Source of the DNA: an uncultured Verrucomicrobia subdivision 3 bacterium
GTDB lineage: Bacteria; Verrucomicrobiota; Verrucomicrobiia; Limisphaerales; UBA11358
Assembly (NCBI GenBank): GCA_903827955.1
Contig: CAIKKJ010000105.1
Coordinates: 1-39,772 of the forward strand
DNA: 39,772 nt
Reading direction: 5' to 3'
The notes under the pieces were generated by a model. It was not told the origin of the DNA, made no database searches, and saw nothing but the letters and a program-made list of their open reading frames with translations. Both the position numbers and the translations under genes were made by a program. Below, piece after piece: positions 36,792 to 39,772 of this stretch. Within the stretch, counting starts at the first letter, position 1; every line of letters starts with the position of its first letter.

Positions 36792-37412
36792 TCACACGAC
36801 CCGCTGGCTGATCGGATCGCTCCAATCGCTGGGGCCGGCGGAACCCACCACATTACACTCCACGTTATACAACACGCCGGGGGTAAGGTTATCAAACGTC
36901 GTGCGCGCGGCGGTGGTCTGGTCCGTCTGCACCACGGTGTTGGGCGCATCGGCGGCGGTCACGCGCCAGTTATAGATGGCTGCGCCGTTCACCGGCGCGG
37001 CGATCGCATAAAGTTCGCCGCTGCGGTCGCCCAGCGTGACCGTCAGACTGCTCGGCGGCTGCAAAACGCCGATGGGCGTGCGATTGGGTTTTTGCGGGGG
37101 AAATCCGCTCGTCAGCAACACGGCCAGGTTGCCATTGCAGGCCACCTGCACATAGCTGGCCAGCTGGCGGAGCAACGCCACCAGCGCGGCGCGCTTCTCA
37201 TTCTTGATGGTGGTCAGGGCCACACCGCCGTTCATGGCATCCGCCACGGCGTTGGCAAAAGCATTTTTTGCCGTCGTGATCACCGCCAGCGTGGGGGCCG
37301 GCGTGGGATAGCTGGCGTTGCCGGTCAGGCCGGTGAGGATGTTTTCTGTGTCAGTGATCAACTGCGCATCGCTGTCGCTGTTGAGGAATGAGATGGAAGG
37401 TTTGATGACCAT
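36792..37412 (-). CDS. Fibronectin type III domain protein
   Basis: A 206-residue protein without a signal peptide. Residues 1-105 form a helical domain (LNSDSDAQLITDTENILTGL, a Pro/Thr-rich loop, then KNEKRAALVALLRQLASYVQ). Residues 115-206 are one fibronectin-III domain (IYNWRVTAADAPN, then TFDNLTPGVLYNVECNVVGS, then WSDPI). I have the impression that this two-part layout is recurrent in environmental bacteria but know no function. Upstream of the ATG is AGAAAG, one of the few Shine-Dalgarno-like leaders in the window. It is near the integron but not within it, and a good terminator follows. It may act as a binding or adaptor protein in the cytoplasm, or be exported by a route without a signal peptide. 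Confidence 0.8.
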   Translation of the reverse strand: MVIKPSISFLNSDSDAQLITDTENILTGLTGNASYPTPAPTLAVITTAKNAFANAVADAMNGGVALTTIKNEKRAALVALLRQLASYVQVACNGNLAVLLTSGFPPQKPNRTPIGVLQPPSSLTVTLGDRSGELYAIAAPVNGAAIYNWRVTAADAPNTVVQTDQTTAARTTFDNLTPGVLYNVECNVVGSAGPSDWSDPISQRVV

Positions 37413-37590
37413 AGTTTTAACTTTCTAACTTACAGGTTACGTTATTAGTTCAGTTACGACATCCGCCGACACACGCCGCCGGACAAAATTTTTGATACCA
37501 AGTTTTGTGCCAACTTTTAGATTGGATTGCGGGATCATATATTCGATGAACGCAACGGTATGGACGCTGCGCGGCAGTCTGTGATTGTAG

Positions 37591-37609
37591 CGGCGGTCTA
37601 TGACCGCCG
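37591..37609. repeat. Short palindrome CGGCGGTC-TAT-GACCGCCG
   Basis: A perfect 8-bp stem with a 3-nt loop in the gene-poor stretch left of the integron. There is no T-run, so it is not a terminator. It is probably part of a dispersed palindromic element. Confidence 0.7.
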
Positions 37610-37703
37610 TGGTTGGCGATAAAAATTACGTCCTGCGGCGCTCACCGGGCGCTGCTGCAAAAAATCCTGCTCCCTCGTGGGGGCGCAGGGTGAATGGATG
37701 GTA

Positions 37704-37726
37704 GGGACAGACCGCCGGGCTGTCCC
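37704..37726. repeat. Short palindrome with arms GGGACAG/CTGTCCC
   Basis: A perfect 7-bp stem around a 9-nt G+C-rich loop, with flanks GTA on the left and CGCCCG on the right. The left flank (GGTAGGG) matches the beginning of the insert at 38299 in the integrase gene, suggesting a common family. Confidence 0.65.
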
Positions 37727-37885
37727 CGCCCGCGCTTTTCAGTCTTCGGCGGGCGGCTGTGAAATGCCACAGGCCGGATGCGGGAGAACCATGGCGATCC
37801 ATTGGCTAAAATCTGCTCGGCCAGACCTGGCGGAAACCCTTGGTTGGTCAAAGCTTTGCCTGCCTAAACCAAGCCAGACTTTTCC

Positions 37886-38047
37886 ATGGTTAAAGCAATG
37901 GTTTCCTTGGTTAAGAAAATGGTTTCCTTGGTTAAGAAAATGGCTGGCCAACCCCTGATTAGGCCTCAATGGGGCAAAAATGAAGCGGCAAAAAACGACC
38001 GCGTGGGAAAATTTTACCGGCCCAAACCATCGAGGTTTCACCGCTAG
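37886..38047 (+). CDS. Small ORF with 21-bp tandem repeats, overlapping the integrase stop
   Basis: A 53-residue ORF: MVKA, then two exact copies of MVSLVKK (21-bp units at 37898-37918 and 37919-37939), then MAGQPL and a basic C-terminus ending [11 protein letters not shown]. Its last four bases overlap the integrase stop on the other strand. The N-terminus would be an amphipathic or membrane-active helix. There is no Shine-Dalgarno motif. The ORF could equally be a chance reading of the tandem repeat, so I treat it as a possible small gene only. Confidence 0.35.
37898..37939. repeat. Two tandem 21-bp units
   Basis: Two identical 21-bp copies beginning ATGGTTTCCTTGG are followed by a third partial start (ATGG) at 37940 and preceded by a related ATGGTTAAAGCA. 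There are no spacers, so this is not a CRISPR array. Confidence 0.85.
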
Positions 38048-39135
38048 GTGTCCAACGGACTCCGCACGCCCAGCCCCGGCTTCTGCATCACATGCGTATA
38101 AATCTGCGTCGTGGAAACATCCTTGTGCCCCAACAAATCCTGCACCGTCCGGATGTCATAGCCATTCTCCAACAGATGCGTGGCAAAGGAATGCCGCAAC
38201 GTGTGCGGCGTGACCGCCTTGGCAATGCCCGCCCGCACCGCTGCCGCCTTCACCGCCCGCTGCACATTCATCTCATTCACATGATGCCGCCGTAAAATGG
38301 TAGGGCGTGCCACTCCGTGCGCGCCGTGTGGCCTTGTCTCCGGGTCCACCGCCAACCCTTTAGCCGGAAACACCCACTGCCAAATCCACTCCCGCTCCGC
38401 CTTGGGATACTTTGTGCGCAACGCCCCCGGTAACCACACCGCCCCGCAACCCGCCGCCAAATCCTGCTCATGCAAAATCTTCACCCGTTCCAAATGCTGT
38501 TGGAGTTCAAGCTTTAGCTTGTCTGGCAACATCGTCACCCGATCCTTAAAACCTTTGCCATCGTGAACCACCACCTGATTCCGTTCAAAATCCAAATCTT
38601 TGACGCGCAACCGCAGCCCCTCCATCAGCCGCAGCCCCGTGCCATAAAGTAACCGTGCAATTAACGCCGGCGTCCCCTCCATCACCGTCAACAACCGCTG
38701 CACCTCCCCCTTGCTCAACACCACCAGCACCTTGGGCCGCCGCAACGGACGCTCCACCGCCCCCAGCTCATCAAACGGCTGATGCAATACTTCCCGATAC
38801 AGAAACACCAGCGCGTTCAAGGCCTGATTCTGTGTTGCCGCCGCCACCTTTTTATGGGTCGTCAGATGCGATAAAAACGCCTCAATCTCCGGCTTACCCA
38901 TTTCCCTTGGATGCCGCCAGGTTTTCTCCCTCGCCCCCTCGGGGGAGAGGGCCGGGGTGAGGGGGCCACCACCCCGATGAAACGCCAAAAACTGCCGAAT
39001 CCAAACCCAATAAGCCTCCTCCGTGCGCAGCGAAAACTGTTTAAACCGCATCACCTCGCGCACCTGCTCCCGCAAACGCAGCTTGGGATTGGGCCGAAAG
39101 CCCTCCCCACGTTTTGAGGTATTTGCTGCTTCCAT
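38044..39135 (-). CDS. intI: Integron integrase (tyrosine recombinase) with two palindromic in-frame inserts
   Basis: Site-specific recombinase that moves gene cassettes between attC and attI. I place the start at 39135 ([11 protein letters not shown]); the frame is open to 39171. The protein has 363 residues against the usual 320-340. The catalytic set is present: Arg169 ([10 protein letters not shown]), His311 and Arg314 (PHTLRHSF), His337 (LLGHKDV) and Tyr346 (TQIYTHVM). The IntI-specific extra domain is clear ([20 protein letters not shown] and RRHHVNE). Residues about 55-73 ([15 protein letters not shown]) and 268-280 ([11 protein letters not shown]) are Gly/Pro/Arg-rich inserts that ordinary IntI lack, encoded by palindromic repeats. 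Catalytic residues lie outside both inserts. The orientation, divergent from the cassette, is the classical arrangement. Confidence 0.93.
38296..38334. repeat. Palindromic insert two in intI
   Basis: About 39 bp starting near GGTAGGGCGTGCCACTCCGT, encoding residues about 268-280 on the minus strand, inside the IntI-specific domain just before RRHH. The imperfect stem is GGCGCGC with GCACGCCC. Its layout parallels the larger element in the glycosylase gene. Confidence 0.7.
38917..38973. repeat. Palindromic insert one in intI
   Basis: About 57 bp encoding residues about 55-73 on the minus strand. The central stem 38928-38938 with 38941-38951 pairs 10 of 11 positions around a 2-nt loop. Read on the minus strand it runs CCCCCTCACCCCGGCCCTCT, the same family as the intergenic element at 17347-17408. 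The length is a multiple of three and there is no stop. Confidence 0.85.
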
Positions 39136-39241
39136 AATAATTCTTGTTTTAACCAAAATACCAGTGGACACAACTCAAAAAAGCGATTACAACAGCAAAC
39201 ATGGAAAGTGATAAACCACGAAAGTGTGGTTCACTATTATG
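39136..39241. promoter_or_regulatory. Putative attI region with promoter for cassette and intI
   Basis: The 105 bp between the intI start and the first cassette boundary should contain attI and the divergent promoters. It includes an inverted repeat AACCAC/GTGGTT (39214-39231), possibly part of an integrase-binding site. On the minus strand, TTGTGT-16 bp-TAAAAC is a candidate intI promoter, though weak. The right edge is the recombination point G|TTAGGC at 39241/39242. Exact attI limits cannot be read by eye. Confidence 0.55.
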
Positions 39242-39692
39242 TTAGGCGTCTTATGATTGCGCTCGCTGACATTATCGCCGATGAGCTTGCAAAGCCTGAT
39301 GGTCATATCCTTCAGGATCGGTTACTTCAGGCGATGTTCATGTTTGAGCGTTTCCGTGGCATTAATGCCGGTTGGCGGGATATAGTTTCAGAGGTTGCGG
39401 AGGCGGATGTTAGTCCAGATGCTATCAGTCGTCTCGCACAGGCGCTACGGACATTCATACTTACTCACAAGCATCACCCTGATATTGGGTCAGCGATTTT
39501 TGCTCTCGGCAAGCTTCGAGCTGATGAGGATGCAGCTTTATTTGAAGCGGTGCTCAAGGATAGCAGCGAGTATGGCACGTTTGCTCGTGAGCAGGCACAG
39601 TTTATTTTGAATGTGATTTGACCATGAACCAGACGCCTAACAAGATTAGATGAGAAGGCAGACCACTGACGCAATGATGCGTTGGTGCTAAA
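39241..39692 (+). mobile_element. First integron gene cassette
   Basis: The unit runs from the junction at GTTAGGCGTC (39241) to the proposed attC end near 39693 and carries the 122-residue ORF. The 10-bp complementarity between the left core and inverse core GACGCCTAAC (39632-39641) is what is expected for R' and R'' of one cassette. Its position next to a divergent intI supports the call. Confidence 0.7.
39253..39621 (+). CDS. Integron cassette protein, unrecognised
   Basis: A 122-residue protein starting at 39253, 11 bp inside the cassette after G|TTAGGC. The same frame opens upstream at 39208, but that start lies in the attI region. I do not recognise the protein. It is predominantly helical and acidic. 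Its C-terminal half (HPDIGSAIFALGKLRADEDA, then ALFEAVLKDSSE) has the spacing of one or two HEAT-like helical repeats. There is no signal peptide or membrane segment. Base composition is visibly more A+T-rich than in the neighbouring genes, consistent with recent transfer. Such cassette genes often encode stress, phage-defence or toxin-antitoxin functions, but nothing here allows a choice. Confidence 0.8.
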   Translation: MIALADIIADELAKPDGHILQDRLLQAMFMFERFRGINAGWRDIVSEVAEADVSPDAISRLAQALRTFILTHKHHPDIGSAIFALGKLRADEDAALFEAVLKDSSEYGTFAREQAQFILNVI

Positions 39693-39699
39693 GTTTGCC
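39635..39699 (+). other. attC site (59-base element) of the first cassette, right end degenerate
   Basis: It begins with the inverse core GCCTAAC (39635-39641, RYYYAAC), the exact complement of the core GTTAGGC at 39241-39247; the match extends to 10 nt with GACGCCTAAC. The interior folds: CACTGACGCA and TGCGTTGGTG pair over 10 positions (two G-T wobbles) around ATGA, and TTAG (39646-39649) pairs with CTAA (39688-39691). The expected right core would be GTTTGCC (39693-39699), which fits GTTRRRY at only five of seven positions. So the left half is secure and the right boundary is tentative. Confidence 0.6.
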
Positions 39700-39700
39700 T

Positions 39701-39772
39701 ATGAAAACCACTACTAAAAAAACCAGTCCTACTCCGTCCGTCGTATCCACCTCCACGCCTGCTGTTGTCAGC
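39701..39772 (+). CDS. Start of a Thr/Ser/Pro-rich ORF, runs off the window
   Basis: An ATG at 39701 opens 24 codons to the window edge, reading MKTTTKKTSPTPSVVSTSTP and on. The low-complexity Thr/Ser/Pro stretch looks like an N-terminal linker. It begins one base past the tentative right core of the attC, so it may be the gene of a second cassette. It could also be the first non-integron gene. Too little is visible for any function. Confidence 0.5.
   Translation, partial: MKTTTKKTSPTPSVVSTSTPAVVS

What the first reader, a model, noticed from the sequence alone, without database searches (positions are those of the whole stretch)
39136..39772. Chromosomal integron with an unrecognised cassette
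A divergent intI, a GTTAGGC core, a 122-residue ORF and an inverse core complementary over 10 nt give a classical integron layout. The cassette ORF differs in base composition from its surroundings and shows no known family by eye. A second ORF begins right after the tentative attC, so the array may continue outside the window.
Basis: partly seen in the sequence, partly recalled or inferred. Interest (0 to 1): 0.65.

Follow-up and report, generated by a model that had tools for sequence, protein, structure and literature searches.

The report
Integron cassette site split by transposon

Summary
The ORF has no relative in the collections tried.

The right-hand part was misread. No intact attC lies in the window. 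From 39643 to the contig end (39772) is the left end of an IS1111-group insertion sequence, inserted one base after the R'' box GCCTAAC; the "second ORF" starts its transposase. The same DNA follows other cassettes on two more contigs of this genome and occurs in 14 of 36 genus genomes. A sister genome holds a complete 1,443-bp copy: 370-aa DEDD transposase, 12-bp subterminal repeats, 7/3-bp extensions, and a downstream non-coding region with a covarying hairpin whose loop matches attC around the insertion point. Joining the window's left flank to a right flank from contig C181 gives an attC 93 of 99 identical to an uninterrupted one in a sister genome.

Known kind: chromosomal integron plus an attC-targeting IS1111 element; the lineage appears new. 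Two genomes carry 371/373-bp transposase-less versions that keep the guide region, the most novel part.

The parts
38044..39135 (-). intI, integron integrase, 363 aa from ATG 39135 (375 aa from an upstream GTG)
   Evidence: TIGR02249 411.9 bits against a cut-off of 265; Phage_integrase and Phage_int_SAM_4; the R, H, R, H and Y motifs of tyrosine recombinases seen by eye in the alignment
39136..39241 (.). presumed attI region, ending at the G of the core site
   Evidence: lies between the divergent intI and the first cassette; GC 0.34; attI function is inferred
39241..39247 (+). core site GTTAGGC at the attI/cassette boundary
39253..39621 (+). cassette ORF, 122 aa, predicted all-helical, no known family
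39632..39641 (+). inverse core GACGCCTAAC: the R'' box (39635-39641) of the cassette's attC and its 3-nt extension; the only part of the attC left in the window
39643..39772 (+). left end of an IS1111-group insertion sequence, cut off by the contig end: AGATTAG extension 39643-39649, subterminal repeat ATGAGAAGGCAG 39650-39661
39701..39772 (+). first 24 codons of the IS110/IS1111 DEDD transposase gene
   Evidence: the near-identical L031 copy reads on into GLDLGDRAHHVCVLD; complete relative in L042

Best explanation
The window ends inside a chromosomal integron. Its integrase gene faces away from an attI site, and the first cassette carries a 122-aa helical protein of unknown role. The attC that closed this cassette has been entered by an IS1111-group insertion sequence between the R'' box and the L'' box, one base after GCCTAAC. 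Shown by sequence: the element's ends, its transposase in a sister genome, its repeated presence at the same base of attC, the empty site, and a conserved hairpin in the non-coding region after the transposase gene. Inferred: that an RNA from this region (a seekRNA or bridge RNA) pairs with the two sides of the attC and guides the transposase there; and that, with R'' moved about 1.4 kb away from L'', L' and R', the attC no longer folds and the cassette is locked in place until the element leaves.
For: Integrase 411.9 bits. The 130 bp after GCCTAAC[A/C] are shared by the window and C164, 99% identical, behind different cassettes; C181 has a 70% identical copy behind a third cassette. 14 of 36 genus genomes (own included) and 0 of 23 others of the order match this DNA. 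L042 holds a complete 1,443-bp copy: 370-aa transposase (NCBIfam transpos_IS110 219.7 bits, cut-off 140; both Pfam IS110 domains over cut-off), 12-bp subterminal repeats, extensions of 7 and 3 bp. Of 28 distinct left ends, 23 follow GCCTAAC exactly and 26 within one mismatch. Right ends in L019, L042, L051 and L040 are followed by AGTCGCCGGAGCC, the L'' side of attC; L035 has AGTCGCCGGAGCT. Window-left plus C181-right gives a 99-bp attC, 93 of 99 identical to the uninterrupted L031 site. Non-coding region: 27 pairs, 7 with changes on both sides, 97.0% of cells paired, covariation score 0.407 against 0.155 (sd 0.032) in shuffles, 0 of 500 reaching it. Its loop carries [T/C]GGCGAC, then TAAC[A/C]AG, the stretches that match the target's two strands, in the order reported for IS1111 seekRNAs. 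In 4 of 4 copies where left end and guide are both seen, the variable base agrees (A in L042, L035/L052 and L081; C in L040).
Against: The copy in the window is cut at codon 24, so whether it is complete is unknown; 2 of 28 left ends are not at an attC-like site (L034, L050) and 3 more differ from GCCTAAC by one base. Guide matches are weak one by one: 17 to 90 of 500 shuffles do as well when wobble is allowed; exact matches to both strands are reached by 3 to 123 of 1000. The 7-pair count itself was reached by 19 of 500 shuffles. No complete transposase or non-coding region was found in the own genome. That C181 is the right-hand partner of the window is not shown; C164 is an equal candidate. 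Right flanks of L079 and L081 are only partly attC-like.
Confidence: 0.9

Rival explanations
1. One reading: a complete first cassette with its own attC, followed by a second cassette whose ORF starts at 39701.
For: Different cassettes in a chromosomal integron often share very similar attC sites, which could put like DNA after different ORFs; the inverse core is present.
Against: No attC in the window by the model; the shared DNA includes the start of a coding region, and in relatives this reads into a DEDD transposase; the complete copy has IS1111 ends and empty sites exist.
Confidence: 0.04
2. The shared DNA is a decayed remnant only: the insertion sequence in the window is truncated just past the contig end, as in C181, and nothing moves today.
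For: Several left ends are followed by unrelated DNA within about 150 bp (C181, L032, L037, L038, L044, L046, L048); own-genome transposase matches are fragments at contig ends.
Against: C105 and C164 are 99% identical over the shared part and both contigs stop inside it, as expected when an assembler meets a longer recent repeat; an intact 370-aa copy exists in the genus.
Confidence: 0.25
3. A cassette array read from the other side: the shared DNA is the attI and leader of another gene, and GCCTAAC is a core site on the - strand.
For: On the - strand the layout CTAATCT[T/G]GTTAGGC looks like an attI core.
Against: The gene that starts there is an IS110-family transposase, not an integrase; integrases already lie on the other side in both contigs.
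Confidence: 0.01

Closest known systems
IS1111 family attC-targeting elements (ISKpn4, ISPst6, ISPa25, ISPa21; 'IS1111-attC group')
   Same: IS1111-type ends with 7- and 3-bp extensions, DEDD transposase, non-coding region after the transposase gene, insertion at one end of attC sites without added bases, guide stretches in the same order (family features from passages of PMC11187229).
   Different: Found here only in Limisphaerales/Verrucomicrobia subdivision 3 genomes. Base-level comparison of the insertion point with ISKpn4 was not possible: the defining papers are not held.
Sedentary chromosomal integrons
   Same: Divergent intI, attI core, attC sites alike within the genus, cassettes of unknown function.
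   Different: Two integrons in one genome, at least one cassette site in each broken by the same element; repeat-derived peptides inside intI. Verrucomicrobiota are already listed among phyla with integrons (PMC8618304, passage seen).
MITE-like, transposase-less IS derivatives
   Same: L040 (373 bp) and L081 (371 bp) keep both ends without a transposase gene.
   Different: They also keep the guide-bearing non-coding region, so they would bring their own guide (inference).

Membership tests
Integron | IntI with the integron-specific region | tested here: met
   TIGR02249 411.9 bits, cut-off 265
Integron | core site next to a divergent intI | tested here: met
   GTTAGGC 39241-39247 beside intI; recombination itself untested
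Integron | cassette closed by an attC | tested here: inconclusive
   No intact attC in the window. R'' is present, and the joined empty site with C181 is 93 of 99 identical to an intact attC, but the partner is not proven. The sister integron on C164 has an intact attC (91.8 bits).
Integron | integrase recombines attI and attC | not testable with these tools
   needs a recombination assay
IS1111 family | DEDD (IS110-type) transposase | tested here: met
   on the complete relative L042: transpos_IS110 219.7 bits, Pfam domains; the window holds only 24 codons
IS1111 family | subterminal inverted repeats of 11-13 bp with 7- and 3-bp extensions | tested here: met
   12 bp, 7 and 3 bp in L042; left half seen in the window; values for the family from PMC11187229
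IS1111 family | long non-coding region after the transposase gene | tested here: met
   L042, L051, L052, L062
IS1111 family | no target duplication | tested here: met
   joined flanks equal the empty site without extra bases
IS1111 family | seekRNA bound to the transposase, circular intermediate | not testable with these tools
   only the fold and the guide matches were examined
IS1111-attC group | insertion into attC sites in one orientation | tested here: met
   26 of 28 distinct left ends follow GCCTAAC within one mismatch
IS1111-attC group | same insertion base as ISKpn4/ISPst6 and transposase kinship with them | not tested
   no ISKpn4-type sequence was at hand; no such name appeared among the 100 plasmid rows shown (40 best, 60 spread) of at least 5000 records

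The most novel reading that the evidence does not exclude
In this genus an RNA-guided IS1111 lineage lives on integron attC sites, together with small non-autonomous elements (371 and 373 bp) that have lost the transposase but keep both ends and their own attC-directed guide RNA, so that guide-carrying passengers spread through cassette arrays on a borrowed transposase and freeze cassettes by parting R'' from the rest of attC.
Probability: 0.35. Interest if true: 0.6.

Novelty: new member of a known kind. Interest (0 to 1): 0.42.

Why it matters
It corrects the reading of the window and shows one RNA-guided element entering cassette sites again and again in a phylum where integrons are little studied. 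The genus gives a natural series of attC sites, element copies and guide regions in which guide and target vary, so guide-target pairing and the effect of such insertions on cassette mobility can be tested directly. A 2024 paper notes that experimental evidence on how IS1111-group insertions affect integron function is limited (PMC11616780, passage seen).

Tried and rejected
Rejected: intact attC plus second cassette. Rejected: the - strand attI reading.

Led nowhere or came out negative: Rfam on 37400-39772, no match. A simple pattern GCCTAAC-(35 to 65 bases)-GTTAGGC in the own genome, no match against 5 and 5 for the control; the genus's attC sites are 98-135 bp, so the pattern was too short. 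Cassette protein: Pfam none, plasmids none, phages none, viral contigs 21 candidate stretches but no relative, solved structures none at E <= 1, 387 genomes of the phylum none except itself. Its single-sequence model (mean pLDDT 76.2) gave 195 structure matches at E <= 10 and none at E <= 0.001, so the HEAT- or TPR-like look is only a hint. Guide matches do not stand on statistics alone. Complete insertion sequence in the own genome: not found; transposase matches are fragments and the guide-region model has no hit there. The search for a named attC-targeting IS1111 element among plasmids showed none in the rows printed. Six literature searches listed no title on IS1111 elements in Verrucomicrobiota integrons, but only listings and starts of abstracts were seen, plus passages of five papers (PMC11187229, PMC12444791, PMC11616780, PMC11089894, PMC8618304). 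Tetu and Holmes 2008 and Post and Hall 2009 were seen only as citations.

Full report
What is there. The window is the whole of contig C105 (39,772 bp) of a 3.86-Mb, 213-contig genome. At its right end an integron integrase gene (38044-39135, - strand) scores 411.9 bits against TIGR02249, cut-off 265. It faces away from a GTTAGGC core (39241-39247), a 122-aa ORF (39253-39621) and GACGCCTAAC (39632-39641), the exact reverse complement of the cassette's first ten bases.

A second integron. Contig C164 (L004) has another integrase (410.6 bits), its own core, a 126-bp attC (91.8 bits) and two cassettes, one with a zinc-ribbon-like protein (best Pfam match just under its cut-off). An attC model built from five genus sites finds 7 places in the own genome at E <= 1, four of them at 42 bits or more: C164, C181, C54 and C73. 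The C73 site looks poor by eye. C54 has two sites with a 135-aa ORF between them; the second site scores only 19.7 bits. In the genus, 21 of 49 genomes have an integron integrase at E <= 1e-60, 19 over the cut-off.

The right-hand part is an insertion sequence. The window's last 130 bp are 99% identical to the start of C164 read on the other strand, and 70% identical to a stretch of C181, each time right after GCCTAAC and a different ORF. In relatives, 14 of 36 genus genomes (own included) match and 0 of 23 other genomes of the order. The nearest copy that continues (L031, 91%) reads on into GLDLGDRAHHVCVLD, the start of an IS110-type transposase. L042 is complete: 1,443 bp, AGATAGA + ATGAGAAGGCAG at the left, CTGCCTTCTCAT + GGA at the right, a 370-aa transposase, transpos_IS110 219.7 bits. 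Transposase relatives at E <= 1e-20 occur in 8 of 49 genus genomes. A scan of one genome per species for 84,980 species with two conserved peptides gave 8 loci from 44 candidate stretches: 7 in Limisphaerales / Verrucomicrobia subdivision 3 MAGs, and 1 weak (27 residues) in an unnamed bacterium. That scan reaches close relatives only.

Target. Twenty-eight distinct left ends were held when counted: 23 follow GCCTAAC exactly, 26 within one mismatch, and two (L034, L050) do not. Many of these loci were fetched with a query that included GCCTAAC, which favours such copies; those fetched by the transposase alone include both L050 and attC-sited copies (L042, L053, L056, L057, L059). Right ends are followed by AGTCGCCGGAGCC in L019, L042, L051 and L040 and by AGTCGCCGGAGCT in L035; L081 has AGTCGCTGGAAAA and L079 has AGCTTGAGCATGG, so not all are clean. 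Uninterrupted sites in the genus read GCCTAACAAGTCGCCGGAGCC...GTTAGGC. Joining the window's GCCTAACA to the C181 right flank gives 99 bp that fold as an attC and agree with the L031 site in 93 of 99 positions, with no extra bases. The element thus parts R'' from L''. C181 may be the partner of C105 or of C164.

Guide region. After the transposase gene five copies share a hairpin. RNAalifold gives 27 pairs, 7 with changes on both sides. Counted against shuffles: 97.0% of cells paired (83.4% expected), covariation 0.407 (0.155, sd 0.032), none of 500 shuffles reaching either; pairs with changes on both sides 7 against 4.5, reached by 19 of 500. The model finds 8 of 49 genus genomes, five of them in the model and three new (G019, G027, G033). 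In the internal loop lie [T/C]GGCGAC on the left (complementary to GTCGCC[G/A], the target just right of the insertion; up to nine bases TCCGGCGAC in L051, L062 and L081) and TAAC[A/C]AG on the right (the target across the insertion point). This order, and the overlap in the target, are those reported for IS1111 seekRNAs (PMC11187229, passages). G033's copy (L083) has only the right part conserved. Where left end and guide are both seen in one copy, the variable base agrees in 4 of 4 (L042, L052/L035 and L081 with A; L040 with C). Statistically the matches alone are weak (3-123 of 1000 shuffles for exact pairs; 17-90 of 500 with wobble and spacing), so the guide role rests on place, order and covariation together and remains an inference.

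Mini-elements. L040 (G018) and L081 (G019) are 373- and 371-bp versions with both ends and the guide region but no transposase gene. Neither genome has a transposase match at E <= 1e-20 (completeness 85 and 96). In G019 the mini-element lies next to a run of three attC sites (72 to 110 bits, L086), and another left end of the element follows it.

Cassette protein. No relative in 387 phylum genomes apart from itself, plasmids, phages, viral contigs or solved structures. NCBIfam's DVU0298 family matches residues 51-114 at E = 0.01, far below its cut-off. The single-sequence model is all helical, mean pLDDT 76.2, with no structural match at E <= 0.001. A helical-repeat binding protein is a guess.

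Mechanism. Shown: an integron layout, a split attC, IS1111 ends, a transposase in the genus, an empty site, a structured guide-like region. Inferred: RNA guidance to attC, loss of cassette mobility, continuation of the array beyond the element.

Verdict. A known kind of system (chromosomal integron) carrying a known kind of parasite (attC-targeting IS1111 element), both in a new lineage. The literature seen is limited to listings and passages; Tetu and Holmes 2008 could not be read.

Noticed in passing
window 38917-38973 and about 38296-38335 (inside intI): intI carries in-frame, repeat-like inserts at two loops ([18 protein letters not shown] and HGAHGVARP). In the alignment of genus integrases other proteins have different inserts at the same loops: L099 and L105 at loop 1; L105, L108, L110 and L111 at loop 2, several with repeat-like peptides such as SPHPDPLPSLRGSGEGG (5 of 25 rows empty). 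The DNA of the first insert has one related copy elsewhere in the window (17,349 counted in + coordinates) and the second has one in locus L075.
   Followed up: partly
L040 558-942 and L081/L086 (G018, G019): Transposase-less 373- and 371-bp derivatives of the insertion sequence that keep the guide region.
   Followed up: partly
window 37881-37943: Three 21-bp tandem copies of TTTCCTTGGTTAAGAAAATGG downstream of intI; a GGTTAA-like rhythm also lies downstream of intI on C164 (L004 about 2255-2340, by eye).
   Followed up: no
L019 (C181) 1-720: Right end of one copy with half an attC, a 94-aa lipoprotein-like cassette (weak BamE match), then a truncated left end that runs into a chromosomal region with a gene read by eye as lepA.
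   Followed up: partly
L004 653-1027 (C164): In the first cassette of the second integron the longest ORF (124 aa) runs against the cassette direction and starts inside the attC; no Pfam match.
   Followed up: no
L028 end (C142) and L029 end (C90): Two more contig ends of the own genome stop inside fragments of an IS110-type transposase, so this repeat breaks the assembly at several places.
   Followed up: partly
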